DNA of 39,885 nt from a virus. The stretch lies in the IMG/VR virus record IMGVR_UViG_3300042900_000713, positions 1 to 39,885 of that record; one strand, 5' to 3'. The notes under the pieces were generated by a model. That model did no database searches, was not told the DNA's origin, and saw only the letters and a list, made by a program, of their open reading frames with translations. This document shows positions 15,101 through 39,885 of this stretch, one piece after another. Each line of letters starts with the position of its first letter. Positions within the stretch are counted from its first letter, which is position 1. A program made the position numbers and the translations under genes.

Positions 15101-18100
15101 AGTGATCTTGTATCAATATTAAGGAAAGTTGAAGATTCACTGTATTGTTCTGGTATTGTTTGTTGAGTATATGGATTAAATTTAAAAATATCTGGTTTTG
15201 GTAGTAAATTTGTATTTTGTGGTATCAATTGTCCAGTGGTAAAATCGACTACTGGTGATGGATTTGTAATTGATGGTGGATTTGAACCATCGGAAGGTCC
15301 TGTTCTATGATTAGGTTTACAAAGTTTAAATATAATTTTTTGTTGTGTAAAATGTGGATCAGTTTCTACATCCTCACCAATCTCAAATTTACCAGAAATC
15401 ATTTCAATTTCAAGTAATTTTGGAATAATATAATTTTTAACATCAATTCCCTCAAAAAAACTATAAAATTTTGTTAGGGGTCTTAAACTTTTTGCATCAA
15501 ATTCAATATTTCTACTTCTTAAATATCGTATTTCTTCAGTGTAATTAGAAACTGATTCAGATCTAGTATCTGCGGTTATAATTTCTTCTGGAACTATAGT
15601 GGTAGTTATGTTCGAACCTGACGGTGTTGAAGTACCTCCTCCAGTAGATCCTGGTGTACTAGGTCCACCACCACCAGTTGATGTAGTAGGTCTCACATTA
15701 CCGACCGCAACAATGAATTGTCTGGGAGCAGATGGTGATGGCAGTAAAATAGAAACTCTTCGGCCGCGAATTCCTATTGTTCCAGTTTGTCGGTTAATAA
15801 CAAGACCAGTTCTTCCTGGACTTAAAAGTTGTGTTAGTGGCCCTATAGCATTTCCTGGAACACTCCTACGGGTTACAAGACTCGTAGGTGTTCCAGAAAT
15901 ACCTAAAGCAAATCTCAAGTTTAATGTTCCTGGATTGTTGATAAAATTTGATGCAGGAATTCCTGATTGTACTATTGGTGGGATTACATTTATTGGTCGA
16001 TTTATTGCAACATTATTAACAGTTATAATATTTTGATCATCTCTTTTGGTTATTTCTTTTATTTCATTATATGACGTTGTTGTTATATTTCTTTCTTCAA
16101 TCCAACTATCAATAGGTGGATTAAGAGTAATTGAACCCTCCCAATATCTTACCAAAAATGGAGTTACACTTTCAGTTTTAGTTGCATATGGTTGTTCTTC
16201 ATATTGAATTTCGTTGTAGTTAAGTGTGATCAAATCTCCAGTTTTTCTAATATTTGGAGATCCTAAATCAGTAACATAACTTTGGTCTATATTTGGATTA
16301 TAAGTTTGCCCAACACCACTAATTGCTTCAGAACCCAATTGCAAGTCGATTGAAGTTGTATAATGTTCTGGTCTTAAGGTATTTGTAGTTGAATCAATAC
16401 ATGATCTAAAACTTGGGTTTTGAAGATCATGGTAATCATGAGAAGAAAAATTATCTACAAAAAATCCACATTTAAATCTATCTAGACCAGTATTAGAATC
16501 TTTAATTATAAAATTTTCGGTTTTAGTTTCAAGTGCAGAAAGTGTTGTAAATTCTTCAACTCTTTGAATTCTTTCTTCAAGTAGTGCAATATCCGACATT
16601 CTATATCTTTTATGTCTAGACATATCAACTTTAACATCTTCTACATTATAAACATATGGTGGAAGATAAAGAGTTGAAATGTCTAAACAATTTGATTTTA
16701 ATATTGGAGGACTCGGATTTTCATCGGCATTTCCTTGTACAATACTAAATGTTCCGTCACTATTCAAGAAAATCCTATCAATTCTTCCAACATAATATGA
16801 ATATGATAAAATTAAATTTTCTCCAGGACATAATGTATATTCTGAATATTGTCCATCAGAAGCAAAGTTTCTTGCAGAAAACTCAAATGGAGATTTTGTG
16901 GATAAAGTATAAGGTGCAACACGAGGTCTTATATCAATATAATCCGTTAATCTCGAATTTTCATATGAAGAAACATCATATTTAAAATTACTTATATTAT
17001 AACTATTTGCTGTAATAAACTCACCAGTGTCTGATGAATCAATTGTATAATTTTGGAATATAATTTTAAGTTTTTTTGATGGTTCCTGAATATTACTTTT
17101 TCTTATAATTCTCGAATAATCATAGAAAGTATCTCTCTGACCATCATCAAAAATAAAGTTTTGTGTAATGTTTTTATCACCTAAGGTCTTCGAAGAAACA
17201 ATCGCTTCCTCTGTAGACTCATTTCCAACAATAAGTTCACCAACAGAGAATTGAATTGTATTTAAATATACATACTCCAACTTATTGATATCTACTTTTC
17301 TAACTATGATTGCTACCGCACCAGAATTTTGTCCCTCAATATATTCTCCAACTACAAAATTTTGATTGTTATTTGGATTTCCTGATATAAGTAAAGTTGG
17401 TAATGCAGGTTCTAATGTATTATTGGATTCATATACAGCAAGAACTCTTACTGCATCTGGAATATTTAAACTAATAATTTTATCTTGAACTCTTGTTCCA
17501 TAAACGTTGCTGTAATTTAATCCATCTTTTAAAGTTGTGGTTCCAACTCCAGAATTTACAAGACTGGAATTTGATACAACTAAAGATGAAACTTTATTGA
17601 ACTTTTTGGATTTTGAGCTTGGTTGAATATTTCTTACCGTTGCAGTAACAATTGCATTTGTTCCGCTTGATTTGGTTAATCCATAAAAAGTTAATGTTTT
17701 ACCATCAAGACTAATATTATATTGATCAAATCTTAATGGTTCAATGCTTCCATCTGAATAAGCAATTACAAATCTATCTTCATCAAAAGAATGAAAGAAA
17801 ATATCAATATCTGAAGGATCAATTGCAACTGAAATTGAACTTTCGGAGAAAGATGCAACATTGTATGTGCGCCTTTGAATAACCTCATTATCCTGAAAAT
17901 TGACTGAGGATACGTTATCCGAATTAAGAAGAGTTAAGAGTGATGAATTTGTAGAATCAACTGACGGTGTAACTTTAATTATATTTGTAACTTCAAAAGA
18001 TCCCGATGGAAGAATGCCATTGCAAATTCCAGTAACTGTAGTAATACCTGTAATTGTAAACGATGTTCCACCAGATCCAACTGCAGTTACTCTATTATAA

Positions 18101-21520: not shown

Positions 21521-21528
21521 TATTTATT
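21521..21528 (-). promoter_or_regulatory. Possible late-promoter octamer before gp8
   Basis: The minus strand reads AATAAATA, overlapping the stop codon of the 3974-aa gene and ending 14 nt before the gp8 start. The spacing leaves only a very short leader. The sequence is AT-rich, so it may be fortuitous. Confidence 0.3.
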
Positions 21529-24500
21529 TAGGTATTATAATTTGAGTATTTTAAACGATTATACCTTTGAATAACTGGAGAGGATGAAATGCCACCAATA
21601 TTCGCATAAGTGATAAATTCATCTGGATTTGGGCGTATAGGTGTCAAAATTCGCCCCCAACTATATTCTCCATAAAAATCACTAAATCCAAGTCCAGTTA
21701 AATTATTATAATTTGAAACACTTACAGTTACTTTGGTGACGTTGGTAAGTCCTACGCCAGGAACAGCAGTTTGGGCAATTGATACTGATGCAACTTGATA
21801 GATGTTATTAATAAAAGTAGTTCCGACACCAACAACCCCACCAGAAAGATTTAGTGATGTTAACCCATTACCCACATTTGAACTATGAACAATAAAGTAA
21901 TATCCAGTTTGAATTCCACTAATCCCAGTTGTAGCAATTCCCACTTTTACAATACTTGAATCTCTTATAATAGAATTTGTAGGAATAAACAAATCAAATA
22001 CAATTCCAGTTGATGCTACTCCAACAGAAGTAGTTTGAACTCCAGTAATTATTCCAAAATCACCTTCATAAGAAATTTTATCGATAATTTCATATTTTGT
22101 AGGTGGAGTTTCAATTAAAACCACTGGTGGATATGTAAACGTGTATCCAAGTCCAGCAGATGTTATTGCAATTCCTGTTACAACTCCTCCCGAAATTGTT
22201 GCAAGTGCTCTAGCAGTGTTCTGTATTGTAGTTGTTCCAAATCCAATTGGTCCGGCAATTGATACTGTTGGGATAGTAGTATATCCATTCCCATTATCTG
22301 AGATAATAATAGATGAAATTGTCCCCGAAGTAGATACTACTGCAGTAGCAGATGAAGAAACTATGGAATCTTGAGAAATAATAATAATTTTATTTTGTGG
22401 TTTTTCTGTAATTCCGTCATGAGTATACTCTTTCTCACTATCAAAGAATGCCTTAACACTTTCAACAAAAATTATGCTAGACCCTATTCCGATATTTTGA
22501 ATAATATTGGTAGTTGGTTGAATATAAGGTTCATAAAGTACCCTATCTTTACCAACTTGTTTCCCATTTATAACCAAGTCTTCAGTTTGTCTACACCAAG
22601 TTAAAGGTCTTGATAGATCTTCATTTTCAGTAATTCCTGGACCTGAATATAAGTTTGTTGAAAGTATATCAGAAGAAATAATTTCAGTAACCAATCTAGA
22701 GTTCTCTTTTAATTTAATATCATTACTAGTTAAAGTAACTTTATCTCCCTGTTTGATGGTTTCTAAAATATCTACATCCAAAGTATCAATATCTGCAGTT
22801 CCTCGATAAAATATTATTTTAGAGGTATCGCCTTCTTTTGGTGCTTCGGTAAATCGTATAATACTTCCCCCAGAAAAACGGTATCCTTCTCCCGGAACTT
22901 GTAGAATATCATTAATAAAAATTAATAAAGTTGCTTGAACATCAATAATTGAACCTTTTTTTGTTCGGATTGAAGTTTGATTCCCCCCAATACGAATTGG
23001 AAATGATTTTCTATTTCCATCAAAAAGGGAATCAATTGGGTCAATAACTTGAAGTGATCCAACCGTCCATGCAGTAAATGCATCAGAGTATACCCCATCA
23101 ATTGATAATTGGAATTCTGAAAAACTTAATGAGGTATTAGTTGGAATTCCTATGGTTCCTCCAATTGAAACCGTTAATACTTCATTTATATTATATCCAT
23201 ATCCAAAATTCTTTAATTCAAATGATATTACACTTGATCCTTGACCAACTATGATATCAACAACCGCACCAGTACCTACACCTGAAGATGATTGAGAGTT
23301 GTATATTAATGGAATATTTGAATATGATAATGGATCATCAAAAATTACGATTGGTGGATTGGATGAAGTATATCCAACTCCTGGATTTGTAATAGCAACA
23401 CTTACAACACTTCCTCCGCTTATAGAAGCGGTTCCAATTAATTGTATATTTGGAATACCAACGTTTGATGTTACAACCCCGACATTTACAACTGTCTGTA
23501 TTCCAGATCTATAACCAGATCCACTATTTCCAATACTAATAGATTGAATTGTACCTGCAACTGATACTACTGCAGTCCCTCCTGCAGATACTAATGGTTG
23601 ATATGCAAATCCTTGTGTAGATCCAACAGAAAGAATAATACCTCCTCTAGGAATACTTGAAGTGTTTACATCATAACTTGTTGATGTTGCTGATCCAGTA
23701 AATGATATGGAAGTTATTCCTGAAGACTCACTTAAGTCATAATCAACAAAATTGGGTCCTTGAAATATTTCATTTACTAATACTATAGTATTATCTGTTG
23801 ATATTCCAGATACATTTGTTCCATTAGACTTTAATGTAAATGTTTTTTGTATTCCATCAAAATCATTTGAAATATCATCAAAAATATAGTTATTTGAATA
23901 TGATTCATTATTACTATCTGCAATCCCAGATCTTAAGAATATTCTTCCACTAAATGATGACCCAGTAGCAATACCGACATAATCTTGCTCATCTGCCCTA
24001 TTTGATTGATTGACAAAAGGCACTTTTCCATAAGGTGCCTCTGAAAAATAAATTTTATTCCCAACAATGTTATAGTTTCCGTAAACTTTAGATACTAAAC
24101 TTGAAGATGAATGAGTAGATAATCCAGTTCCCATCCAAGGTCTAACTACACTTATTGAATTTGTACTTCCAACTCCAACTGCAGTAACTTTCATAATTTC
24201 TTCATCAATTTTAATCAAGTCTCCACCATAAACTGATGTTATACCAGAAACATATACCAAAGAACTAAAAGCAGTTAAATTACGAATTAATGATGATGTA
24301 ATTGCTGTTGAAACAATAGGAGATTGAATAACATTATCAATTCCAATAATTGCTTTTTTGTTTTGATTTTTTGAAGTAAATAAATGAGAACTCCCTATGC
24401 CAACAGAAGTTAATTCTAAAACTTTTGGAGTAGTTTTTAAAGCATCGGATGCAGAAGTAGAAACTCTTATTTGAGAATCATTTAGTTTAACAACATATAA

Positions 24501-27500
24501 CTTAGGAGGAAGTTTATCAGTAACACCAATACCAGGTACAGAAGTTGTAGCGATACCAATTGCTTGCGCCGACTTAGTAGGGTATGAATATATTATTTCT
24601 TCTCCAGTAACATAGTAATTGTAGGGAATTGTAATTATATTTTTATCAACTTTAATAATATCTGGATTAGTGCCATCGATATATCTTTCAAAAATTGGTA
24701 TATTTTTATGTTTTAACTCAAATTCTTTTTTAATATCTGAATTTGTTCCTGTGTATATTCCATAATCATATTCTAGAGATCCATTTATTAATGATATGTC
24801 GTCAATATTATTACTCAATCCAATGTTAATTGCAAATACTTTGATATCAACATCAATATCTTGAATGGGAGTGAAATAAATTTCAGTATTTGCACCAGAA
24901 ATTCCTGCCGTTGTAATTCCTAAAGAAGATTCTGTTTGTAAAATTCCGAATTCTGTAATATAGCATTGATTTTCTTCGTAATTTGTTACAACTAAAATTT
25001 CAGAAACTTGATATTTTGAATTGGTCTTATCTTCAATACTAATAATATAATATGAACTATTGTAATTTGTATTTGAATAACTTGATATTATGTTTGCTAC
25101 TGGAGAAACACTGGAGGAAATTGCGACTGAAGATGAATTTAGAGAACTTCCTCCAATAATTTCAGTTCCAATTCCGGAAGCACTAGTATTTGCCAAAGAC
25201 ACATTAAAAGTATTAACAATATAATCAATAGAAGTTACTGTATCTGGTATTAAATCAATTTTAATCTCCGAACCAGACAAATAAGCATTATATGTTCCAA
25301 TGCCCAAAGATGAACGTGAAGTAAAACTATCGGTTGTTATTTGTCCATAATCTAATAAATGAATTTGATTTCCATCGTTAATAATAGTAATCTCATCAAC
25401 TTCATAATATGAAGAATCAGTTGCTCCAATTTGAACTAAAACTTTTGATGCTCTATAAGTAGATGCAATTCCTACAATAGAAGTAGAAATTCCAGTTCCT
25501 TGTGGAATTATAGTATTACTAGTATTAATATGAACAGAATTTCCTAAATCTACTGTACCAATTCCACTTAGACTATCGTTGAGGGAGAAAGAAAAAATTT
25601 GTAAATTATAATTATTAAATTTTGTTTTTACTGGATAAAAAAGTAAATTTCCAGATGTTCCAGAAACACTAAAATCAAAAAATCCCAAATTCGGAGATTC
25701 TACTACATTTAATCCATATTGGTTCATAAATCCAACATTATTGTCGTGAAGAAGTACTATGGCACTAAATTGTTTCTCATTTATAAATTTTTGATCTTGT
25801 ATTAGAATAAAATATTTTTTAGATCTGACATTTGTTAACGTAAATGAGTCTACAATACTAAACTCTGTTGCTCTAGGATTACTATTAAATTCATTTGAAA
25901 TATTATCAATTACTAAAACTCTATTTCCAATAGATTCAATATAATCTTGAATAACTCTAGAATCAAATAAAATTTCATTAGAAGTAATAGTATCGTCAAT
26001 GATAAGATTATTTTCCCGAGCAAGATCAAAATCATAAACACAATTAAGGTCAATGAATCTAGACAAATCTGCAGTACCAGAAAAATCTCCTTGATTTTGA
26101 TCTGTTGAAATTCCGATATTTAATGGTTTTGATTCTATAATTAAATTACCAAATTTTTTAAATCCTGCGGTATGGTTTAACGAACTTACTGGATTATCCC
26201 AAGTAGTCAAATCTTTTTGAGATTTCAATTCATATGAAAAATATTGATAATAATCACTATCATGAATTCGTTGAAAATCGTTATTTAAAAATCCAGTTTC
26301 GGTATTCCACCCTTTTCTTGTTTTTGAGGATGAATCAACAGCATAATTAGATTCATAACTTAATATATCATTAATAATACCAACGGAGTTTGAAGTTTTT
26401 CCTCGTATATTACTACCAATAGGAAAATCATCAACTGTGGATATTTTGAGATATTGATTATCTGGATCCCAAAATTGAACATTTCCAACTGATGATTCAA
26501 AATAAATTATTTCTCCTTCATAAAAAGAGTTTTTCTTTAGAATTGGATTAAAAGTTGGAAAATATGATTCTGGAATTATTCTTCCTGCAGATGAGTTAAT
26601 TTTAAATGTTCCCGGAATTTCTTCATTATTCAAATAAGATGAGAGGTTGTATGTAACAACTCCAACTGATCCACCAAGATTTGGATCTACAGCAGTAAGA
26701 GTAAATAATGCATAATCATAATTTGAACTGTTATATCCTTTACCGGTACTATTAACACCTACACTTATACCTTCAATTAATACTTTACTCCCCACTTCAA
26801 ATGGATAATCTTCGGGATTACTAAAACTTGCACCTATAGTTACGGTTACATTTTTAGTTGAGTTGTTAAATGTAATATTATCAATTTTAATTCCATTTGA
26901 ATTATTTGTTGGAATAATTTTAGGAATCGCATTATTAAGAGAACTACTGTTTTTACGTATAGTTACTAAAGAATCACCAAGATTATAAAATAAGTCAACA
27001 TCACTAACTATTTTATTAGTTATTCCATCAATAACTACAAGATCTGGAGAAGCAGTATAATCTTTTCCAATTGAATTAATTTCAATATAATCAAAAAATG
27101 AAAGAGGTTCCAAAACTAATATACTAGGGAACTTCGTGGTAGGTCTAACACTGTAATCAGCAGAATAATCAAATCCAATATCTTGTATTTCTATTGATGT
27201 AATCTTTCCAATAGAACTGGTTTTGGGTTTAACAATTGCATTTAAACCTAAATTAGATTCTATGGAAGTAACTGAAGGTAATCTTGAATATCCTTTTCCT
27301 TTACTTAGAACTTTAACCTCATAAATTGATCCTTGTGCTGAAAGTGAATTATTAGTATAGTATTCTATGCCTTGAGTGTAAATTGGTTCTTCAGGAAATT
27401 CTAAAATATTAAAACTAAATGTTGTGGAAGTAATTCCTACGACTGAGTATTCACCATTATATTTGCTCTCAGATAAAGTAATTTTATTAAATCCTCGTAC

Positions 27501-30500
27501 TTCTGTATCAATTAAAATATCTTTTTTAATTTGCGAATTTCTGTCCAAATTAGTAGGAACCAATTTATAAAATAAATTAGTCGGAGTACTATCATTAATA
27601 GTTAACGTAATATTTGCGGTGGAAGTAATTCCAATTGTACCAATTCCTGATATATCAAATATTTGTGAAGACTGCGTTGTATTGAATTCATCAATAAATT
27701 GTTCATCCCGATAAAATCTAAATTCAAAGGCAGAATAATTTGTCGAATTGGCGTTAAATGACAGAGAGGAATCTGAAAGATCAAAAACTACTCTTTTATT
27801 TTTTGTTAAATTGAGTGGCGGATTGATTGGTGAAATTGTTCCTGGATATGAAGTTGTAATATCAATTATCTCTGGAGGTAATTTAACTGATCCATAATAA
27901 GTATCTGATAATTTAATTTTATTCGAATCAATAGTAACAATATAATAAATTCCAAAATTGATTAAACCAGTTGCTGGAGTTGTCGCTGTGTATATAACTT
28001 TTTGTCCAGTATAGTATTGGTGATTATTAATTGTAATAATATTATTAATAGTATCAATAGATGAAAAAGTTCTAGGATTAATTACCAATCTTCTATTATA
28101 GTCATCATATTTTACTACGAGTGTAGTAGAAATTCCCGGTCTTACATTAATGTTTACATTATCAAGTAGAGATAATCCATGAGTTTCTGCAGTAGAAACA
28201 GTAACTACATTTTTACTAATATTTCCAGTTAAAGTATTTGTATAATTTGTTGTAAAACTATGATTATTTCCGGTTCCCACCGAAGTAAAGTATAAAATAC
28301 CAGATTTTAATGTTGATCCAACAGAAACAAAATTTCCAATTGATCCAAGTCCAACTTTAATAGTTGAAATTCCAATTAAATCATTAGAAATTTTTGCAGC
28401 ATAAACAATTGAATTTTCTTCTAGTTGAAAAGAAGAAGATCCATTAGTAGAAATTGATATAGCATTTCCACCATTTGAAGAATATATTAAAGAATCTCCA
28501 GTATTTAAATTGTGATTTTCAATATAAATTGATTGTGTTGGTATTGTAATTTGAGTAACTCCAACACCCGGATTTGAAAAATAAATTGTGCTAACAATAC
28601 CAACTCCAGAAGTTGTTCCTAATCCAACAGACTCTCTTGGATTAAAATAAAATTCTTTATTAACATTAAAATTATATGTGGTTGAAATTCCAAAATTAAG
28701 TTTTAGTTTTCTAGTTTTCTCAGTAAATCCAATACCGGCAACATATGAAGTCAATCCAGTAGTTCCATTTTGATTACGAAGAACTTTAATTCTAGATGAT
28801 CTGGAATCAATATTTAAAATTTTAATCTTTTCATTTTGAATTTGGTAGATATCATTTTCTTTGATATTTGGATAACTTAAATCTCCAGAGACATTAAAAT
28901 AAGTAATAATTCCAGTATATTGTGCGGAACCAATTCCAGATGTTAACGTGAGATTATTTGTATTAACTACTATATTACCTGACTTTTTATAATCATTACT
29001 ACCAGTAAAAGTAACTAGATCATTATTTGAATAATTGTGTGGAATTGAAGTAAATCCAATAAAAGACTGATTATATGGATAAAACTCAATTTCATTAAAA
29101 GATGATGTAGCAACACTAATTTGAGTTACTTGTTTCCCTTTAATTGAAGAAATTTTTGCTTTTGCTCCAAATCCAGATTGGTGATTAAAAATTAATCTAT
29201 CATTTATTTTATAATTTTGCCCACCATCAAAAATTTCTATAGAATCAATAGATCCTTCTAAAACACTTTTAACAATAGAGTTTTGTTCTTTAATTTTATT
29301 TGGGTTGAGTAAATAATCATACGAAGAAATGTTATATGGAGTAATATTTCTTTTCCAATTAGTTTGATTTATATCAATATAATCTTGATTTGAATAACTG
29401 TTAAAATTAAAATCAATTGGTTTTGCTTTATATGAAGGCCCAATTATATACGGAAAGATTGGTTTTTTTGAAACACTATTAATAGTTGAAAAATATGCAT
29501 AAACTCCATTTGGATACTCTGGAGTAATTCCAAATCTTCCATTATGTTCATCTAATTTATTAAATTCATCAGAATCTTTGTTTCCAACAAAATTATAATC
29601 TTCTATAAAAAATCCTTTTGGATAAATTGATTCTCTAGGTCTACTTGATGGCGAATCTATTAGGTCATACCCAGAAATTAATGGTATTACCTTTCCGCCA
29701 GTTTTTGACGCATATCCATATGGTCCATAAATTGGATTTCCATCATATGCCCACCCAATAATTGGTGAGTGTGAATTTGCTATCTGAACTATATTTTTTA
29801 GGTATTTTGGAGCATACGCATGTGAATATTGAAGTCCATAATTGCTGTTTAGTCCTGGAGTTAAAATTCCTTCGTCAACAGATATTTGAGAATTTATTAC
29901 TAATCTTTCTACCAAATTAATTTTCCAAGATTTAATTTGTGCTTCAAATTTTGCATCTAATCCTGCTGGCGTTACTGTAATTGAAGTGTCTGTGTGATTA
30001 TACCCAATTCCACCGTATATAACTTTAACTTCAACTAAAGATCCATTTGATAATATGGGAGTTAGTACTGCACCAGTACCAGTTCCATCAATTTGAAGAT
30101 TTGGTGGAGAATTGTACCCATTTCCAGAACTATTGACCAAAACATCAACGATTTGTCCATTTGAAATAATCGGTGTTAATTGAATTCCCGATCCAGAATT
30201 TAATTCAAAGAGTGGTTGTCTATTATAATTGATAATATCCTCAGAACCATAATTTAATCCACCAGAACTAATAAATATTGATTGTATTTGCCCCCTAAAG
30301 ATTGGTTGAGCGATAGCATTAAAATTTTGACCGGAAAGAGTAGAAACCCCAATTCTTCCACTAATAGATACACTTATTTCTGGATAATTAAATCTATGAG
30401 AACCAACACCAGAGGAAGTTAGATTCACATATTGATTTGTATCATAATAGAATTTTTTAGTAACACCTAGTGTACCAATTCCAATTTGAGATAATTTAAA

Positions 30501-33452
30501 TTGATCATCATCAATTATAGTCACATAGTAAGAAGTTGAAGATGATAATCCACCTATAACAGTTTCGGTGGGATTGTATGTAATAACTTCACCACTATTA
30601 TATCCATGATTTAAAACTGTAATAGTGTTTGATGCTGTATTAATACCACTTGCACTAGTTGCAACCAATTTGTTTTGATAGTTTATTCCACTATTTTCAA
30701 TAGTGATTGATCCTATTTTTTTCTTTTTATTTTTAGATTTAAATGAATGATTTCCTACTCCATAAGAAGTCAATTGAATAGTGTTAATTCCAATAACAGC
30801 ATCTTCAAATGACTTATGGAGTTTTATGTTATACGCATCTTGAACAGAGACAAAATACGTTGAATTTGTTGGTAGATTACCTATCGTAGATATACCGCCA
30901 ACAATAGGTGATTGTCCATCAGTTACGTAAATTACTTCTTCAGCATCTCTAAACTTATGATAACTAGAAAACCCAATTGTATTTGTAGGATTTAATTTTA
31001 CTAAACCTGCAGATCCAATTGAGTTAAAAGAAACACTATGATCAAAACTTGCTAGATTTACTTTTGCAGATGCTCCAGATCCATTACCACCGATAATATC
31101 AATCGTAGGATCTTCAAGGTAATCAAACCCAGGATCTATGATATCAATTCTCTCCAGTCCACCAATAACCGAGCAATATCCATTAGCCCCAAATCCATTA
31201 GGATCTATAATTGATAAAATTGGGGGATTGATTACGTCATACCCTGAACCAGGTGCAGATACCACAATATCTTCAATTGGACCATAAAAAACATTATCTG
31301 TTGATTTATAATTAAGAAGTTCTACTCCATTAATAAAAATACCAGTTAATCCAGGTACAGTTTCATAAATTTTTCCATCAATTTCTGGATTGGAAATTTT
31401 TCTAATTAATTTTTGTGGTTCAAGTATTTGTGTATCTAGATTATTGTAAGTAAACTTTGTAAGTTCAAATTTAGCATTCTTAACATCGGCATCTATAGAA
31501 ATAAAATTTTCAGTAAAAATATTATTCCTACTTCTTGCCAATTTTATTTCAGTACCACTTATTCTTTTGATAAAATAAACGCCCGTTGAAATTCCTAAAG
31601 AATTTCCCAATGATGGTTTATATACAATTGAATCTCCAGTATAAAACTTATGTGTACCTATGTCTAAAGTAGTACCTTTGTTTAAATTATCCGCATCATC
31701 TGGTAAAAAAGTTCCACTAAAAGATATTGAACCATCATTTATGCTTAATGGTATATTTAAATATGTTGGAAGTGATGGTGAAGCAACATATAAAGAATCT
31801 TGATCTAGATAAACATTTTGAACATTTGAAGTATATTTACTCAATGATGGATATTTGTTTTTATCAGTATTAGATAACTGAACTTTAGATACATTTTTTT
31901 GAACAATATATGTTTGATTTATATTTAAATTTTGATTTGATCCAAGTAAAACACTAAAAGATTTTTCATCATTAATAGAAGTAATATTTGTAATCAGTGG
32001 ATCACCTGAAGAGGGAATTAAAGATATTGAATCTCCTAATCTAAAAGAATGATTATCAGGCACAGTAAAGGTGTATGAACCTTCAGCAGCATTATCTAAA
32101 GTTGAAATTCCGGAAACTGAGTATTTTACCGGAATATTGAAAAACCAATTATTTGCTTTAACATCTTTACTATCAATACCTAAAGTTTTTATTTTTACAA
32201 TATCTCCTTTTGAATAAAAAAGAGTATTATCAGGTATCGGTAAATCGGATAAAACACCAAGAATTCTAATTTTTACTATCTCTTCGTTAGAATATCCATA
32301 TACAAAGAAATCTGATTTGACTTCTGTTGCTGAAGGAATGTCTTGAGTAATTCCAATACAATCTAAAAATTGATTTAGTGTTTTTGACGCATAAGTAACA
32401 TTTAAAGATGTTCCATTATCAAGATCAATAATTAAGTTCCCATTTGAATTTGGAAATGCTACGGTAGAGTCTACTTCTAGTGTTGTTGATCCAGAAATTA
32501 CTGAAGATACTGATACTATTCGTGTTTTTGGGTGTATTTGAAATTTTCCATAAACACTTCCGCTTGGTTGTATATCTTTATCATAATCCGAATCTAAACT
32601 TATAACATAATAATCTTTAGATTCTCTTCTAATTTTTTCAACATTAGTTATAGTTCCCTGTGCTCTGTTTATATTTTCAGTTTCATCTTGGTAGAGAGTT
32701 GTATTTACAAGATCTTCAGGATTCCCTTCGATTTTTTCTACAACTAAATCAGAAGTGATTCTATATTGTGCGCTAGATGGTTGAATTAAATAATCTCTAG
32801 GTCTAATGACTTCAACATTTTGTCCATATAATGCACCAAATAAAATTTTAAAGGAATTGTCAGTTCCTTTTGAAGAATAAAAATCAATAGATTGCTTTAC
32901 AAAAAGTCTTTCATCTAAATCAACATATAATTCTCTTTCTTCAAATCCTGGGGTAATTTGCTTTTTAACTTTCTTGAAAAATTCTTTAAGAAAAAGAATA
33001 CTTAAGTTAGATACTTTTGTGGATAAGATATGTTCTTCTACTTGTGTTTCAGAAAAACTTAACTGATCCTTAATTTCGTATGATGTAGTTCCATCGAAAC
33101 CACGAATGCACCCTTCAAAAGATGTAGACGTTTTTGAGGTATATGTAATAATCTCAGAATCTATTAAAATAAGTCCATATGAATCCGGAAATCCTAATGT
33201 TGAATCAACATTAATTGTAGTATCAAAAAATGTTACATTTGATGATAATTTAGTTGATTCAATTAAATTTGCTAAGTTATCAACTTTAATATATTGATCA
33301 ATATTTTGAAGTATATCACTAGTGTGTCCATCACTTTCTAATGAAATATAATATTGTGATAAAAATTCAGAAACAAGAGGAAACTCTTCTTTAACAAACT
33401 CTGGAAGTTGATTTTGAATGATTGAACTGATTTTGATTCTGGTTTTTCTCAT
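21528..33452 (-). CDS. Giant 3974-aa virion protein in the gp7 (baseplate wedge) slot
   Basis: The largest gene here, lying between gp6 and gp8 where T4 has gp7 (1032 aa). The first 250 residues (FVKEEFPLVSEFLSQYYISL, ERELYVDLDERLFVKQSIDF, then KILFGALYGQNVEVIRPRDY) look like a wedge anchor and I recall this type of start from cyanophage structural proteins. The rest is a string of beta modules: RG/GT modules at about 71-120 and 3067-3115; TGD/Y modules near 595, 836, 951, 1651, 1817 and 2951; at least eleven GxGY repeats (about 736 to 3775, dense near the C-terminus); and a YHYH-type domain at about 1225-1340. No frameshift or internal stop. A link between wedge and side fibres is inferred. 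Confidence 0.85.
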   Translation of the reverse strand: MRKTRIKISSIIQNQLPEFVKEEFPLVSEFLSQYYISLESDGHTSDILQNIDQYIKVDNLANLIESTKLSSNVTFFDTTINVDSTLGFPDSYGLILIDSEIITYTSKTSTSFEGCIRGFDGTTSYEIKDQLSFSETQVEEHILSTKVSNLSILFLKEFFKKVKKQITPGFEERELYVDLDERLFVKQSIDFYSSKGTDNSFKILFGALYGQNVEVIRPRDYLIQPSSAQYRITSDLVVEKIEGNPEDLVNTTLYQDETENINRAQGTITNVEKIRRESKDYYVISLDSDYDKDIQPSGSVYGKFQIHPKTRIVSVSSVISGSTTLEVDSTVAFPNSNGNLIIDLDNGTSLNVTYASKTLNQFLDCIGITQDIPSATEVKSDFFVYGYSNEEIVKIRILGVLSDLPIPDNTLFYSKGDIVKIKTLGIDSKDVKANNWFFNIPVKYSVSGISTLDNAAEGSYTFTVPDNHSFRLGDSISLIPSSGDPLITNITSINDEKSFSVLLGSNQNLNINQTYIVQKNVSKVQLSNTDKNKYPSLSKYTSNVQNVYLDQDSLYVASPSLPTYLNIPLSINDGSISFSGTFLPDDADNLNKGTTLDIGTHKFYTGDSIVYKPSLGNSLGISTGVYFIKRISGTEIKLARSRNNIFTENFISIDADVKNAKFELTKFTYNNLDTQILEPQKLIRKISNPEIDGKIYETVPGLTGIFINGVELLNYKSTDNVFYGPIEDIVVSAPGSGYDVINPPILSIIDPNGFGANGYCSVIGGLERIDIIDPGFDYLEDPTIDIIGGNGSGASAKVNLASFDHSVSFNSIGSAGLVKLNPTNTIGFSSYHKFRDAEEVIYVTDGQSPIVGGISTIGNLPTNSTYFVSVQDAYNIKLHKSFEDAVIGINTIQLTSYGVGNHSFKSKNKKKKIGSITIENSGINYQNKLVATSASGINTASNTITVLNHGYNSGEVITYNPTETVIGGLSSSTSYYVTIIDDDQFKLSQIGIGTLGVTKKFYYDTNQYVNLTSSGVGSHRFNYPEISVSISGRIGVSTLSGQNFNAIAQPIFRGQIQSIFISSGGLNYGSEDIINYNRQPLFELNSGSGIQLTPIISNGQIVDVLVNSSGNGYNSPPNLQIDGTGTGAVLTPILSNGSLVEVKVIYGGIGYNHTDTSITVTPAGLDAKFEAQIKSWKINLVERLVINSQISVDEGILTPGLNSNYGLQYSHAYAPKYLKNIVQIANSHSPIIGWAYDGNPIYGPYGYASKTGGKVIPLISGYDLIDSPSSRPRESIYPKGFFIEDYNFVGNKDSDEFNKLDEHNGRFGITPEYPNGVYAYFSTINSVSKKPIFPYIIGPSYKAKPIDFNFNSYSNQDYIDINQTNWKRNITPYNISSYDYLLNPNKIKEQNSIVKSVLEGSIDSIEIFDGGQNYKINDRLIFNHQSGFGAKAKISSIKGKQVTQISVATSSFNEIEFYPYNQSFIGFTSIPHNYSNNDLVTFTGSNDYKKSGNIVVNTNNLTLTSGIGSAQYTGIITYFNVSGDLSYPNIKENDIYQIQNEKIKILNIDSRSSRIKVLRNQNGTTGLTSYVAGIGFTEKTRKLKLNFGISTTYNFNVNKEFYFNPRESVGLGTTSGVGIVSTIYFSNPGVGVTQITIPTQSIYIENHNLNTGDSLIYSSNGGNAISISTNGSSSFQLEENSIVYAAKISNDLIGISTIKVGLGSIGNFVSVGSTLKSGILYFTSVGTGNNHSFTTNYTNTLTGNISKNVVTVSTAETHGLSLLDNVNINVRPGISTTLVVKYDDYNRRLVINPRTFSSIDTINNIITINNHQYYTGQKVIYTATTPATGLINFGIYYIVTIDSNKIKLSDTYYGSVKLPPEIIDITTSYPGTISPINPPLNLTKNKRVVFDLSDSSLSFNANSTNYSAFEFRFYRDEQFIDEFNTTQSSQIFDISGIGTIGITSTANITLTINDSTPTNLFYKLVPTNLDRNSQIKKDILIDTEVRGFNKITLSESKYNGEYSVVGITSTTFSFNILEFPEEPIYTQGIEYYTNNSLSAQGSIYEVKVLSKGKGYSRLPSVTSIESNLGLNAIVKPKTSSIGKITSIEIQDIGFDYSADYSVRPTTKFPSILVLEPLSFFDYIEINSIGKDYTASPDLVVIDGITNKIVSDVDLFYNLGDSLVTIRKNSSSLNNAIPKIIPTNNSNGIKIDNITFNNSTKNVTVTIGASFSNPEDYPFEVGSKVLIEGISVGVNSTGKGYNSSNYDYALFTLTAVDPNLGGSVGVVTYNLSSYLNNEEIPGTFKINSSAGRIIPESYFPTFNPILKKNSFYEGEIIYFESSVGNVQFWDPDNQYLKISTVDDFPIGSNIRGKTSNSVGIINDILSYESNYAVDSSSKTRKGWNTETGFLNNDFQRIHDSDYYQYFSYELKSQKDLTTWDNPVSSLNHTAGFKKFGNLIIESKPLNIGISTDQNQGDFSGTADLSRFIDLNCVYDFDLARENNLIIDDTITSNEILFDSRVIQDYIESIGNRVLVIDNISNEFNSNPRATEFSIVDSFTLTNVRSKKYFILIQDQKFINEKQFSAIVLLHDNNVGFMNQYGLNVVESPNLGFFDFSVSGTSGNLLFYPVKTKFNNYNLQIFSFSLNDSLSGIGTVDLGNSVHINTSNTIIPQGTGISTSIVGIASTYRASKVLVQIGATDSSYYEVDEITIINDGNQIHLLDYGQITTDSFTSRSSLGIGTYNAYLSGSEIKIDLIPDTVTSIDYIVNTFNVSLANTSASGIGTEIIGGSSLNSSSVAISSSVSPVANIISSYSNTNYNSSYYIISIEDKTNSKYQVSEILVVTNYEENQCYITEFGILQTESSLGITTAGISGANTEIYFTPIQDIDVDIKVFAINIGLSNNIDDISLINGSLEYDYGIYTGTNSDIKKEFELKHKNIPIFERYIDGTNPDIIKVDKNIITIPYNYYVTGEEIIYSYPTKSAQAIGIATTSVPGIGVTDKLPPKLYVVKLNDSQIRVSTSASDALKTTPKVLELTSVGIGSSHLFTSKNQNKKAIIGIDNVIQSPIVSTAITSSLIRNLTAFSSLVYVSGITSVYGGDLIKIDEEIMKVTAVGVGSTNSISVVRPWMGTGLSTHSSSSLVSKVYGNYNIVGNKIYFSEAPYGKVPFVNQSNRADEQDYVGIATGSSFSGRIFLRSGIADSNNESYSNNYIFDDISNDFDGIQKTFTLKSNGTNVSGISTDNTIVLVNEIFQGPNFVDYDLSESSGITSISFTGSATSTSYDVNTSSIPRGGIILSVGSTQGFAYQPLVSAGGTAVVSVAGTIQSISIGNSGSGYRSGIQTVVNVGVVTSNVGIPNIQLIGTASISGGSVVSVAITNPGVGYTSSNPPIVIFDDPLSYSNIPLIYNSQSSSGVGTGAVVDIIVGQGSSVISFELKNFGYGYNINEVLTVSIGGTIGIPTNTSLSFSEFQLSIDGVYSDAFTAWTVGSLQVIDPIDSLFDGNRKSFPIRIGGNQTSIRTKKGSIIDVQATLLIFINDILQVPGEGYRFSGGSIIRFTEAPKEGDTSKIIFYRGTADIDTLDVDILETIKQGDKVTLTSNDIKLKENSRLVTEIISSDILSTNLYSGPGITENEDLSRPLTWCRQTEDLVINGKQVGKDRVLYEPYIQPTTNIIQNIGIGSSIIFVESVKAFFDSEKEYTHDGITEKPQNKIIIISQDSIVSSSATAVVSTSGTISSIIISDNGNGYTTIPTVSIAGPIGFGTTTIQNTARALATISGGVVTGIAITSAGLGYTFTYPPVVLIETPPTKYEIIDKISYEGDFGIITGVQTTSVGVASTGIVFDLFIPTNSIIRDSSIVKVGIATTGISGIQTGYYFIVHSSNVGNGLTSLNLSGGVVGVGTTFINNIYQVASVSIAQTAVPGVGLTNVTKVTVSVSNYNNLTGLGFSDFYGEYSWGRILTPIRPNPDEFITYANIGGISSSPVIQRYNRLKYSNYNT
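22100..23560 (-). repeat. C-terminal cluster of GxGY beta repeats in the giant protein
   Basis: Coding repeats of pattern I-x-I-x-x-x-G-x-G-Y-x-x-x-P-x-V, about 40-60 residues apart: ISIGNSGSGYRSG, VAITNPGVGYTSSNPP, FELKNFGYGYNIN, IIISDNGNGYTTIP and IAITSAGLGYTFTYPP. Each seems to be a beta hairpin followed by a Gly-rich joint with a SGG or GGVV linker. The same repeat occurs in gp8, gp14 and the 2604-aa protein. Confidence 0.75.
29420..29790 (-). other. YHYH-type domain inside the giant protein
   Basis: Around residues 1225-1340 the protein reads HSPIIGWAYDGNPIYGPYGY, then LDEHNGRFGITPEYPNGVYA with YFST, then FPYIIGPSYKA. This is the pattern of the YHYH family (PF14240), with the DGxPIYG, D-E-x-N-G-R, TPEYPxGxYxY and PYxxG landmarks all present. 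The YHYH domain is found in secreted and surface proteins of unknown biochemical function. Here it lies between two GxGY repeats, so it looks like an inserted globular domain. Confidence 0.8.
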
Positions 33453-37559: not shown

Positions 37560-37714
37560 TTTTTTGTGAGAGTCTTATATAACTATCGCGTTTCTTAAGA
37601 TTTGTAGGTTACAGGGACCCATCGATTTTTATCGGCATGGCGCCGCCCATAAGGATCGCTTATCATTAAAAACACTGTCCATAAGCACGACTAATGACTG
37701 TACTTAAGCACGAA

Positions 37715-37755
37715 CATAGTGGGTGCTAAGTGTAACGAACTCAGCACCCACTATG
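37715..37755 (-). terminator. Strong 13-bp hairpin after the 100-aa gene
   Basis: Perfect arms CATAGTGGGTGCT and AGCACCCACTATG with a 15-nt loop that can pair three further bases across one mismatch. It starts 7 nt after the stop codon of the 100-aa gene, so it probably ends or protects that transcript. There is no T-run on either side, so it is not a textbook intrinsic terminator. Confidence 0.6.
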
Positions 37756-37761
37756 TGTAAC

Positions 37762-38064
37762 TCAGACGCAATACCTACCGACTACAACGGACTCACACGA
37801 TTGCACAATCTTAACGACCAAACCGCTGAAATAGGTTTGGTTACAGATACCTTGCCAACCCTGCGCCAGTAGATCACCCTCTGTCCGAAGAAACTCCGCC
37901 AGAGCATACACTTGCCCCCGGTACTTGAAGAACATCGCAGAATCGAAGTCTGCGTCATTCATGTAGTCAAACTCTTTACGGAGTTTGGTATACTGTGCGC
38001 CGTTAAGTTCAAACGCCGAGATGAGATCGCGGGGAACGAAGTTGGTGGTGATGGCGATAGACAT
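37762..38064 (-). CDS. Cassette A: 100-aa protein of unknown function
   Basis: Starts MSIAITTNFVPRDLISAFEL and ends GLVVKIVQSCESVVVGRYCV. The middle (AMFFKYRGQVYALAEFLRTE) looks globular, with alternating hydrophobic and charged residues; no named domain is recognised. It is the last ORF of the small-gene array and the longest complete one. A G/C hairpin and a -10-like TACACT (38085-38090) lie upstream and the strong hairpin 37715-37755 downstream. Its leader lacks the conserved 15-nt core found before the other cassette genes, so it is the outlier of the set. GC content is visibly higher than in the structural genes. Confidence 0.75.
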   Translation of the reverse strand: MSIAITTNFVPRDLISAFELNGAQYTKLRKEFDYMNDADFDSAMFFKYRGQVYALAEFLRTEGDLLAQGWQGICNQTYFSGLVVKIVQSCESVVVGRYCV

Positions 38065-38125
38065 GATGAGAACGTTTTGAGAACAGTGTACTGAATGGGG
38101 GAGGATTGCGCCTCCCCCGATTACA
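38065..38125 (-). promoter_or_regulatory. Hairpin plus -10 unit before cassette A (divergent copy)
   Basis: Contains the stem GGGGGAGG/CCTCCCCC with a 6-nt loop (38097-38118), then a -10-like TACACT at 38085-38090, 21 nt before the start of the 100-aa gene. The layout (stop, hairpin, -10, start) is that of the other units but the sequence differs and the GAGTCAACACCGCAC core is missing. Confidence 0.55.
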
Positions 38126-38302
38126 TCAGGCGTCGAAGGTTTCCATCGCCCAACTCCACAAACTACGGGAATTGATAAGGTCTACGGAATAGGTCTTGCC
38201 AAACCTATTCTTCAAACCGTCAACTACATAACCCTCACGAGAAGAACCCGTGAGGATATAACCGGATTGCTGGCAGTGAGCGAGGATCTGATCGAAGGTC
38301 AT
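38126..38302 (-). CDS. Cassette B: 58-aa protein of unknown function
   Basis: Starts MTFDQILAHCQQSGYILTGS and ends INSRSLWSWAMETFDA. One Cys, no Cys pair, no membrane segment. The sequence could form a small alpha/beta fold (GYVVDGLKNRFGKTYSVDLI). The ORF is too short for statistical support on its own; it is called because the ATG and TGA sit exactly at the edges of the conserved inter-gene units, as for its neighbours. Confidence 0.68.
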   Translation of the reverse strand: MTFDQILAHCQQSGYILTGSSREGYVVDGLKNRFGKTYSVDLINSRSLWSWAMETFDA

Positions 38303-38376
38303 CGGTCTCGTGTGCGGTGTTGACTCTGGAATTGTAGCACGGATCCGGGGGGACCGTGAGTCCCCCCTCGCTGGAT
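38303..38376 (-). repeat. Inter-cassette unit before B (class I)
   Basis: A 74-bp unit filling the whole gap between the stop of C and the start of B. In order on the minus strand: ATCCAGC after the TGA, the hairpin GGGGGGAC/GTCCCCCC with loop TCACG (38347-38367), palindrome CGGATCCG, extended -10 TGCTACAAT (38331-38339), and leader with invariant core GAGTCAACACCGCAC. The -10 lies 29 nt before the ATG. Terminator-like hairpin, promoter and leader are inferred from layout; there is no U-tract. Confidence 0.7.
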
Positions 38377-38634
38377 TCAGACTGCGACCCAGTAGGAATA
38401 GTTCGGGGTATTGTCTAGATCCCGCTGCTCTGCCATGATGTACTCATGACGGAAGTTGTAATGAGCATCGGATGCCCGCCATCCCTGGCACTGATTGTAA
38501 ACATCTTCCAGAGTGCGAGCATAAGCAATAGTGCAGGCGATTCTGCCATCCACAACCTTAGCAACGGCAAACGGGTAACGGTCCGGGGTGAGAATGGTCT
38601 TGAGCGGGGTCGGGGTGATGGTGGAAGCGGTCAT
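38377..38634 (-). CDS. Cassette C: 85-aa protein of unknown function
   Basis: Starts MTASTITPTPLKTILTPDRY and ends AEQRDLDNTPNYSYWVAV. The middle (FAVAKVVDGRIACTIAYART, then LEDVYNQCQGWRAS) suggests a small alpha/beta protein. The reading frame stays open further upstream to 38724, but that extension would run through the conserved inter-gene unit, so the ATG at 38634 is chosen. The first eight residues (MTASTITP) are identical to those of cassette E, and the DNA around the start is shared, implying duplication of the 5' part. No known domain. Confidence 0.72.
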   Translation of the reverse strand: MTASTITPTPLKTILTPDRYPFAVAKVVDGRIACTIAYARTLEDVYNQCQGWRASDAHYNFRHEYIMAEQRDLDNTPNYSYWVAV

Positions 38635-38708
38635 CGGTCTCGGGTGCGGTGTTGACTCTGGAATTGTAGCACGGATCCGGGGGGACCGTGAGTCCCCCCT
38701 CGCTGGAT
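38635..38708 (-). repeat. Inter-cassette unit before C (class I)
   Basis: A 74-bp unit almost identical to the one before B: hairpin 38679-38699 (8-bp G/C stem), CGGATCCG, extended -10 TGCTACAAT (38663-38671) and the invariant leader core. The -10 is 29 nt before the ATG. The leader differs from the B copy by only one or two bases (CCCGAGACCG versus CACGAGACCG). Confidence 0.7.
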
Positions 38709-38897
38709 TCAGTATCCTAACCACACCAGCAGTTCGCCTAGATCTACTCGCCCGAACTTCGCGGTAGTTCCGTACTCTGAACGAAAGTCATTCAGGCAGC
38801 AGTGGTCTTTAGCAACCTCGTAGGCAAGATGCCAGGAGATTGTATCACTATCGTCTGCCGCGTTTTGTAGAATCTGCGGAAGGGTGGCGCTGTTCAT
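38709..38897 (-). CDS. Cassette D: 62-aa protein of unknown function
   Basis: Starts MNSATLPQILQNAADDSDTI and ends LGELLVWLGY. Sequence is helical and acidic with a Cys-Cys pair in DHCCLNDFRSE. No recognised domain. The N-terminus does not share the MTAST start of C and E, and its upstream unit is class II, so this cassette has a different promoter variant from its neighbours. Confidence 0.68.
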   Translation of the reverse strand: MNSATLPQILQNAADDSDTISWHLAYEVAKDHCCLNDFRSEYGTTAKFGRVDLGELLVWLGY

Positions 38898-38971
38898 TGT
38901 GTCGTGTGCGGTGTTGACTCTTTAATCCTAGTCGGTCAGGAGGGGGACCCGTGAGTCCCCCCTTGCTGGAT
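38898..38971 (-). repeat. Inter-cassette unit before D (class II)
   Basis: A 74-bp unit with hairpin GGGGGAC/GTCCCCC (38942-38961) and the invariant leader core, but the middle differs from class I: the -10-like element is TAGGAT (38925-38930), 28 nt before the ATG, preceded by CTGACCGAC instead of CGGATCCG. No extended -10 TG. Confidence 0.66.
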
Positions 38972-39187
38972 TCAATCAACCCATAACGCGTTAGCGATGA
39001 TGCTCGCCGCTCCCCCTATGTCATCTCTGACGATCCTGCGAAGAACTTCCTGCCCCAATTCGGTTTTGTGCATGGCACGGATACCCTCAGCACTTTTGGG
39101 ATCGTATGCAACGACCTTGAATGACTCCGCGATCAGGAGAAGAACCTCGGGGGTGAGGGCGGCAGGGGTGATGGTGGAAGCGGTCAT
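38972..39187 (-). CDS. Cassette E: 71-aa protein of unknown function
   Basis: Starts MTASTITPAALTPEVLLLIA, with an amphipathic helical stretch (ESFKVVAYDPKSAEGIRAMH) and a C-terminus GGAASIIANALWVD. The N-terminal eight residues match cassette C. No named domain or Cys motif. The TGA and ATG lie at the edges of conserved units, as for the other cassettes. It could bind a protein or membrane partner, but there is no direct evidence. Confidence 0.68.
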   Translation of the reverse strand: MTASTITPAALTPEVLLLIAESFKVVAYDPKSAEGIRAMHKTELGQEVLRRIVRDDIGGAASIIANALWVD

Positions 39188-39259
39188 CGGTCTCGTGTGC
39201 GGTGTTGACTCTGGAATTGTAGCACGGATCCGGGGGACCCGTGAGTCCCCCAGCAGGAT
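39188..39259 (-). repeat. Inter-cassette unit before E (class I)
   Basis: A 72-bp class I unit: hairpin GGGGGAC/GTCCCCC (39232-39251), CGGATCCG, extended -10 TGCTACAAT (39216-39224) 29 nt before the ATG, invariant leader core and CACGAGACCG immediately before ATG. Nearly identical to the units before B and C. Confidence 0.7.
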
Positions 39260-39433
39260 TCAGATTATCGGTGAGATCACTTCGTTCGAGAATGCATCGG
39301 CGAACTGCGCTGCTAATGCAGTAGCGGGAACACCATAATCGGTCGTGAGCGGATTAAACGTAGAATCGTCATTCTTGCGAGCGACCCAGACGGTGGCGCG
39401 GTCAGAGAGGCGGGATGCTTGTGATAGAATCAT
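39260..39433 (-). CDS. Cassette F: 57-aa protein of unknown function
   Basis: Starts MILSQASRLSDRATVWVARK and ends AQFADAFSNEVISPII. A short helical or mixed sequence with no recognised motif. Called on position between two conserved units and on an unbroken frame, not on homology. Its start codon is spaced slightly further from the -10 (32 nt) than in the other cassettes. Confidence 0.63.
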   Translation of the reverse strand: MILSQASRLSDRATVWVARKNDDSTFNPLTTDYGVPATALAAQFADAFSNEVISPII

Positions 39434-39508
39434 GATCGGTCTCGGGTGCGGTGTTGACTCGGTAAGTCTAGCGGGTCAGAGGGGGGACCGTGAGTCCCCC
39501 CGGCAGAA
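39434..39508 (-). repeat. Inter-cassette unit before F (class II variant)
   Basis: A 75-bp unit with the 8-bp hairpin GGGGGGAC/GTCCCCCC (39481-39501), a -10-like TAGACT (39465-39470) and the invariant core. The leader carries three extra bases before the ATG. Confidence 0.64.
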
Positions 39509-39682
39509 TCACCAGATCGCAGGGGATCCGTTCCGGTAGGATCCGATGATCATGCCGTTCTGGCGAACCTCAGCGTACCCATAATCCTGCGAGAGATCCA
39601 GGCAGAGATCCCATGCGCGATCGGCATCGGTGGTTTCGTTCTCCCAGGTGGCAGCGGGGCAGATGACGGAGAGGCGGGTCAT
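39509..39682 (-). CDS. Cassette G: 57-aa protein of unknown function
   Basis: Starts MTRLSVICPAATWENETTDA and ends MIIGSYRNGSPAIW. It reads like a small alpha/beta protein (RAWDLCLDLSQDYGYAEVRQ). Two well-separated Cys residues do not form an obvious metal site. No known family is recognised. Both flanks are conserved units. Confidence 0.65.
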   Translation of the reverse strand: MTRLSVICPAATWENETTDADRAWDLCLDLSQDYGYAEVRQNGMIIGSYRNGSPAIW

Positions 39683-39764
39683 GGTCTCGTGTGCGGTGTT
39701 GACTCTGTAATCCTAGTCGGTCAGGAGGGGGAACCGTGAGTCCCCCGTGCCAGTTGCTAGATTG
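39683..39764 (-). repeat. Inter-cassette unit before G (class II, longest)
   Basis: An 82-bp unit. The hairpin (39727-39746) keeps the G5 arm but its partner arm carries TT, leaving about 6 bp of stem. The -10-like TAGGAT (39710-39715) lies 28 nt before the ATG and the invariant core follows. Extra length lies between the stop of H and the hairpin (CAATCTAGCAACTGGCAC). Confidence 0.63.
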
Positions 39765-39885
39765 TCACATCGCCCAGAGATCATCTACCGTACACTCCAT
39801 CATCGCGGCAAATTGCTCACAACTAAGTGAGTAATCTATCGGAGACAGTGTAGGAATGTCATTCTCCCAGACTACATTAAACTCT
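39765..39885 (-). CDS. Cassette H: C-terminal fragment of a small protein (gene continues past the right edge)
   Basis: Thirty-nine codons are visible before the TGA at 39765-39767. The fragment reads NVVWENDIPTLSPIDYSLSC then EQFAAMMECTVDDLWAM, acidic and helical. It occupies the next slot of the cassette array. No function is recognised and the start is out of view. Confidence 0.6.
   Translation of the reverse strand, partial: EFNVVWENDIPTLSPIDYSLSCEQFAAMMECTVDDLWAM

What the first reader, a model, noticed from the sequence alone, without database searches (positions are those of the whole stretch)
37762..39885. Tandem array of small-gene cassettes with conserved stop-to-start units
At least eight short ORFs with no visible similarity to each other, apart from one shared N-terminus, sit head to tail. 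The six gaps from B to G are copies of one 72-82 bp unit, each running from the TGA of one ORF to the ATG of the next. The non-coding DNA is conserved and the coding DNA is variable, the reverse of normal. This suggests that ORFs are exchanged, gained or lost between fixed control units, as in a gene-cassette system, and that each gene is expressed on its own. If real, it would be a modular store of small early or host-takeover proteins in a T4-like phage. I do not recognise this arrangement.
Basis: partly seen in the sequence, partly recalled or inferred. Interest (0 to 1): 0.8.

Follow-up and report, generated by a model that had tools for sequence, protein, structure and literature searches.

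The report
Shuffled small-gene cassettes in cyanophages
A T4-like virus of cyanobacteria carries a row of about 25 tiny genes, most of them separated by copies of one hairpin-plus-promoter-like unit, and comparison with relatives shows that the genes are gained, lost and reordered by recombination between these units, a cyanophage version of a principle (PeSLs) known from T4-type phages of other bacteria.

Summary
The array lies on the minus strand and runs on past the window to ~45.2 kb of the 124.7-kb phage record: about 25 small ORFs and 18 units of one type. Each unit reads: stop codon, GC-rich hairpin, TAnnnT (-10-like), AAGTCAAC leader, ATG. Hairpin arms covary and sit at a fixed distance from TAnnnT. 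Nine of ten ORF families with measurable dS show dN/dS 0.12-0.33, so they are genes. The same units occur in many metagenomic cyanophage contigs and in marine ACG-2014f isolates. Homologous cassettes stand in scrambled order, always on one strand. One cassette, found in 61 contexts, has downstream neighbours from 24 families but keeps a 3' hairpin in 56 of 60. Indel breakpoints among seven ACG-2014f isolates are enriched in units (79 of 266; null 22). Hybrid units show crossovers inside the unit. This is the mechanism proposed for PeSLs of T4-type phages, so the principle is known; its dense cyanophage form was not found in the papers I could search (S-PM2 was reported as sparse). Promoter and terminator activity are inferred: window units lack a recognisable -35 and a U-tract. 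Early expression and host-takeover function are untested. Verdict: new variant of a known kind.

The parts
37762..38064 (-). ORF A, 100 aa, last cassette of the array
   Evidence: dN/dS 0.25 against L070; phrog_21085 E=1e-9
38065..38125 (-). diverged unit before ORF A: hairpin 38097-38118, TACACT, other leader
   Evidence: -18.2 kcal/mol, z -2.3
38126..38302 (-). ORF B, 58 aa
   Evidence: dN/dS 0.17 against L016
38303..38376 (-). unit: hairpin 38347-38367, TACAAT 38331-38336, leader AGAGTCAACACCGCAC
38377..38634 (-). ORF C, 85 aa (MTASTIT N-terminus)
   Evidence: dN/dS 0.19 against L016
38635..38708 (-). unit: hairpin 38679-38699, TACAAT 38663-38668, leader
38709..38897 (-). ORF D, 62 aa; replaced by two cassettes in relative L016
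38898..38971 (-). unit: hairpin 38941-38962, TAGGAT 38925-38930; matches the L016 unit up to the hairpin, then switches to the other unit variant
38972..39187 (-). ORF E, 71 aa (MTASTIT N-terminus); homologues in L070 and L103 at other positions
39188..39259 (-). unit: hairpin 39230-39253, TACAAT 39216-39221, leader
39260..39433 (-). ORF F, 57 aa
   Evidence: L081 homologue, 38%
39434..39508 (-). unit: hairpin 39481-39501, TAGACT 39465-39470, leader
39509..39682 (-). ORF G, 57 aa; phrog_17176; 79% identical homologue in L049
   Evidence: dN/dS 0.12
39683..39764 (-). unit: GGCAC box, hairpin 39728-39746, TAGGAT 39710-39715, leader
39765..39885 (-). ORF H, 49 aa, runs to 39914 of the record; array continues to about 45.2 kb
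37714..37756 (.). 18-bp-arm palindrome that closes the array; a similar hairpin closes the array in L049
   Evidence: -34 kcal/mol, z -5.6

Best explanation
This is a hyperplastic region of a T4-like cyanophage (Kyanoviridae-type), just upstream of baseplate genes 25 and 6, built as a chain of one- or two-gene cassettes joined by composite units. Reading along the coding strand, each unit holds the stop codon of one gene, a GC-rich hairpin, a -10-type element (TAnnnT) about 11 nt further on, a conserved start-site/leader AAGTCAAC, and the ATG of the next gene. Inferred: the hairpin ends or protects the upstream transcript, and host RNA polymerase restarts at the -10 element, so each small gene is its own transcription unit. 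Shown by comparison: units are 70-80 nt of shared sequence at nearly every gene boundary, and recombination between them adds, removes and reorders whole cassettes without breaking a gene or its signals. It works like the PeSL system of T4-type phages.
For: 18 units, one strand, invariant TAnnnT and AGTCA. Of 62 units in seven loci (a few counted in two registers), 48 have a stem of 6 bp or more, mostly ending 10-12 nt before TAnnnT; own arms match 5.4 of 6 positions, swapped arms 3.0. AAGTCAAC kept in 97-98% of 59 units; in ACG-2014f a TTGGCA/TAGGCA hexamer lies 17 nt before TGCTATACT, and some units have T-runs after the stem. Scrambled order of homologous cassettes. One cassette: 57 downstream neighbours in 24 families, hairpin after the stop in 56 of 60 (shuffled 1.4). 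In 70 relative loci, 336 units on the gene strand, 22 on the other, 9 in control. Breakpoints in units 79 of 266, null mean 22, maximum 49 in 1000 shifts. Hybrid units: the single US7 unit is the left half of C16 unit 1 plus the right half of C16 unit 2; window versus L016 switches at the hairpin.
Against: In the window the standard scan finds no consensus sigma-70 promoter and no U-tract terminator at any unit; GC-rich shuffles fold nearly as well, so energies alone are weak. Breakpoint counts are not independent, and 70% of breakpoints lie outside units. No transcription data. The PeSL papers themselves could not be read.
Confidence: 0.8

Rival explanations
1. The units are conserved control elements of an early gene cluster, kept alike by selection or gene conversion; recombination between them is incidental and does not drive cassette turnover.
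For: The TAnnnT and leader are conserved across distant phages, as selection on promoters would give; most indel breakpoints lie outside units.
Against: Hybrid units at cassette indels, about 3.6-fold breakpoint enrichment, same-strand scrambling with intact signals.
Confidence: 0.15
2. The hairpins are not terminators but 3'-end stabilisers or processing sites in longer polycistronic early transcripts; the TAnnnT/leader is a start or processing signal. Shuffling still occurs at the units.
For: No U-tract after the hairpins of the window arrays (T-run of 1-2 in 56 of 59), while some intergenic regions of the same phage have hairpins followed by long T-runs.
Against: In ACG-2014f a share of the same type of unit has T-runs of 4-7 after the stem.
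Confidence: 0.3
3. Integron-like or other site-specific system: units are recombination sites for a recombinase.
For: Hairpin-bearing repeats between promiscuous small genes resemble attC cassettes in outline.
Against: No Phage_integrase or Resolvase domain in the 124.7-kb record, which may be incomplete; each cassette seems to bring its own promoter-like element; switch points differ between events.
Confidence: 0.04
4. Assembly chimera or repeat artefact at the GC jump near 38 kb.
For: GC jumps from about 33% to 54% there.
Against: Independent contigs L070, L049 and L016 have the same kind of array; L070 and L049 have it beside the same flank.
Confidence: 0.01

Closest known systems
PeSLs (promoter-early stem-loops) of T4-type phages: Arbiol et al. 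2010 (doi 10.1093/gbe/evq006), Comeau et al. 2014 (doi 10.1093/gbe/evu129)
   Same: Composite stem-loop/early-promoter units between small variable ORFs in hyperplastic regions of T4-like phages, at which related phages exchange genes (as cited in PMC4503421 and PMC3950731; details of the two papers from memory).
   Different: Unrelated sequence; cyanophage host; unit at almost every gene boundary; hairpin overlies the -35 position; strongly conserved start-site leader AAGTCAAC; no U-tract or recognisable -35 in the window.
S-PM2 'ORFanage' region (PMC4503421)
   Same: Small-ORF-rich part of a T4-like cyanophage upstream of genes 25 and 6; a few units of the present type, one before the homologue of Kyano_Gp96 (PF23790).
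   Different: Units sparse; the authors judged PeSL shuffling unlikely there.
HGTV-1 motif with TATA box and inverted repeat before most left-arm ORFs (PMC3950731)
   Same: Repeated promoter-like motif plus inverted repeat before ORFs, likened to PeSLs by its authors.
   Different: Archaeal virus and promoters; only analogous.
Halovirus HF2 intergenic repeats (PMC8707807)
   Same: Intergenic repeats that carry promoters, shown by reporter assay.
   Different: Positions conserved between relatives; no cassette shuffling described in the abstract.
Integron gene cassettes
   Same: Row of small exchangeable genes separated by hairpin-bearing repeats.
   Different: No integrase found; each cassette seems to have its own promoter-like element.

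Membership tests
PeSL system of T4-type phages | Lies in a hyperplastic region of a T4-like phage among variable small ORFs | tested here: met
   Structural T4-type genes in the window; array upstream of genes 25-6 as small-ORF regions are in cyanophage isolates
PeSL system of T4-type phages | Stem-loop in each unit | tested here: met
   48 of 62 units with stem of 6 bp or more, arms covary
PeSL system of T4-type phages | Sigma-70-like early promoter in each unit | tested here: inconclusive
   TAnnnT at fixed place in all array units (TAnnnT was part of the search, its place relative to the hairpin was not); -35-like hexamer at 17 nt only in ACG-2014f and some relatives; none by scan in the window
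PeSL system of T4-type phages | Stem-loop is an effective terminator | not testable with these tools
   No U-tract in window arrays; T-runs in some ACG-2014f units
PeSL system of T4-type phages | Recombination between units causes gene indels between related phages | tested here: met
   L016 versus window
PeSL system of T4-type phages | Small circular DNAs formed between nearby units (from memory) | not testable with these tools
   Needs reads or PCR
Integron | Tyrosine-recombinase integrase | tested here: not met
   No PF00589 match in the record; the record may be incomplete

The most novel reading that the evidence does not exclude
T4-like cyanophages share a large, apparently phage-only pool of small-protein genes in a common format: a fixed stop-hairpin-promoter-leader-start interface at nearly every boundary, on which the hairpin both insulates the genes and serves as the crossover site, so that whole early regions are reassembled between lineages more densely than known PeSLs do.
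Probability: 0.4. Interest if true: 0.65.

Novelty: new variant of a known kind. Interest (0 to 1): 0.52.

Why it matters
How T4-like cyanophages acquire and lose their many small unknown genes is open; the S-PM2 study left the mechanism unclear (PMC4503421). Here the exchange points can be read off the sequence, junctions can be tested in public isolates, and the unit gives a handle for finding and cloning cassette genes whose products may act on the host. A cassette with 115 viral relatives gave none in 84,980 bacterial and archaeal genomes by the tool's criteria, which points to a phage-only gene pool.

Tried and rejected
A regex for TAnnnT plus relaxed leaders over all loci picked up noise in L073 and S-PM2 and was replaced by a set limited to the seven array loci. 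A single -35 hexamer at 16-18 nt was sought in window units and not found. Rfam: only one sub-threshold chance match. No tRNAs near the array. Shine-Dalgarno strength: no clear difference between array and core genes. psbA is not in this record. Of the 30 contigs with the 15-nt core, only L016 and L042 show the unit; the rest look like chance matches. L042 matches the record at 100% and is no independent witness. The similarity of TGGCACA to the -24 element of sigma-54 promoters was dismissed: cyanobacteria lack sigma-54 (own knowledge). A RecA-family (UvsX-like) domain was not found in the record by PF00154, so the recombination enzyme is not identified.

Full report
What is there. The window is the first 39,885 bases of a 124,703-base virus record. 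Its left part encodes T4-type structural proteins: tail sheath, terminase, head closure, gene-25-like baseplate wedge, with 73% DNA identity over part of gene 18 to Synechococcus phage S-SSM7. The small ORFs of the finding are on the minus strand. All six gaps between ORFs B and H are copies of one 72-82 nt unit. Beyond the window the series goes on to 45.2 kb: 18 units of this type and about 25 small ORFs of 43-117 aa. Units become more varied outwards, but TAnnnT and AGTCA are invariant in all 18. The A-B gap and one unit outside the window have the hairpin and TACACT with another leader.

Anatomy of the unit, coding strand. (1) Stop codon, often in TGTGACAGTCTGACAACTGGCACA. (2) A GC hairpin, for example GGGGGGACT-CAC-GGTCCCCCC. 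(3) TAnnnT. (4) AAGTCAAC and an A/C-rich leader. (5) ATG. Over 62 units in seven loci, 48 have stems of 6 bp or more, most ending 10-12 nt before TAnnnT. 32 distinct arm pairs match themselves at 5.4 of 6 positions and each other at 3.0, so the stem is conserved by covariation. The leader AAGTCAAC is kept in 97-98% of 59 sequences; the sequences were collected by a pattern that included AGTCA, so only its flanking letters and the hairpin are independent of the search.

Promoter and terminator reading. Direct evidence is only by sequence. TAnnnT at a fixed place after the hairpin, followed by a conserved segment, fits a -10 element and start site. In ACG-2014f isolates the same kind of unit has TTGGCA or TAGGCA 17 nt before TGCTATACT, with the -35-like hexamer inside the hairpin, and part of the units have T-runs of 4-7 after the stem. 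Some relatives of one cassette have TTGACT 17 nt before CATACT. In the window itself no -35 and no U-tract is found. So I treat 'promoter' as likely and 'terminator' as uncertain here. Cyanomyoviruses are thought to use unmodified host RNA polymerase for early genes (PMC2984593).

The ORFs are genes. Thirteen families were compared with relatives: nine give dN/dS 0.12-0.33, one 0.52, three have saturated dS. Most of those scanned have no Pfam family. The exception is Kyano_Gp96, PF23790, at 42190-42507 of the record, found in 417 phage records, most of them cyanophages. One cassette at 40116-40373 of the record is predicted with high confidence (pLDDT 90.7) as a winged helix; Foldseek puts MarR-type and other winged-helix regulators on top, though with E-values only near 0.002.

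Turnover. L016, about 93% identical in the shared parts, has two cassettes where the window has ORF D. The unit at one edge is nearly identical up to the 3' arm of the hairpin and then switches from variant B to variant A. In L070, L049 and L103, homologues of the cassettes stand in other orders, all on one strand. The cassette at 40116 was found in 115 viral contigs and in none of 84,980 bacterial and archaeal genomes by the tool's criteria. In 61 distinct contexts its 57 downstream neighbours fall into 24 families and 41 upstream neighbours into 22; some of these families may be ORF-calling errors. A hairpin follows its stop within 60 nt in 56 of 60 (shuffled 1.4). Seventy such loci carry 336 hairpin-TAnnnT-ORF sites on the gene strand, 22 on the other and 9 in a reversed control.

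Public isolates. Seven Synechococcus phage ACG-2014f genomes have 16-24 units of a related type in the 24 kb examined. Of 266 indel or replacement edges, 79 fall in units, against 22 expected and at most 49 in 1000 circular shifts. Edges from the same event are counted in several genome pairs, so the size of the effect matters more than the number. The C16/US7 case is clear by eye: C16 has a 606-bp gene between two units; US7 lacks it and has one unit, whose left half matches C16 unit 1 and whose right half matches C16 unit 2.

Comparison with the known. Composite promoter/stem-loop units that mediate gene shuffling in hyperplastic regions of T4-type phages are known as PeSLs (Arbiol 2010, Comeau 2014; not held in the library; described second-hand in PMC4503421 and PMC3950731). 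PMC4503421 looked for them in cyanophage S-PM2, found few and thought the mechanism unlikely there. A paper on recombination among wild cyanophages (PMC5112629) has no occurrence of promoter, repeat, stem or PeSL. So the principle is known, and the dense cyanophage form appears not to be described in what I could search. The unit sequence, density, position of the hairpin over the -35 and the conserved leader set it apart, hence 'new variant of a known kind'. Integron-like action lacks a recombinase.

What is shown and what is inferred. Shown: units, covariation, coding ORFs, scrambled order, breakpoint enrichment, hybrid units. Inferred: transcription start and stop at units, early timing, one-gene expression, role of the products in host takeover, homologous recombination as the enzymatic route.

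Noticed in passing
window 37590-37670: Non-coding stretch between the array and the next conserved gene is similar in L049 (about 7590-7660): CTACAGGGACCCAT...GGATCGCTTATC. Perhaps an RNA or regulatory element.
   Followed up: no
record 47759-47929 (L009 10760-10930): Tandem 19-bp repeats (TAAGAACCATAAGACTACA type), outside the window; function unknown.
   Followed up: no
window 38.1-39.9 kb; L070, L081, L103: The array segment is 54% GC (57-63% at most in relatives) in phages that are about 33% GC elsewhere; this may point to a common high-GC source of cassettes.
   Followed up: partly
units with TGTGACAGTCTGACAACTGGCACA, e.g. record near 43332-43410 (perfect GTGTGCCAGTTTCCAAAGTGGCACAC): A second, weaker hairpin that contains the stop codon may precede the main hairpin.
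   Followed up: partly
window 12127-19941 and 21528-33452: Two very large ORFs (2604 and 3974 aa) in the baseplate region.
   Followed up: no
window 38377-38634 and 38972-39187; record 43160-43312 and 42893-43045: Pairs of otherwise different ORFs share the first residues (MTASTIT, MTTTDT) together with the unit before them, as if the unit had been copied with the gene start.
   Followed up: partly
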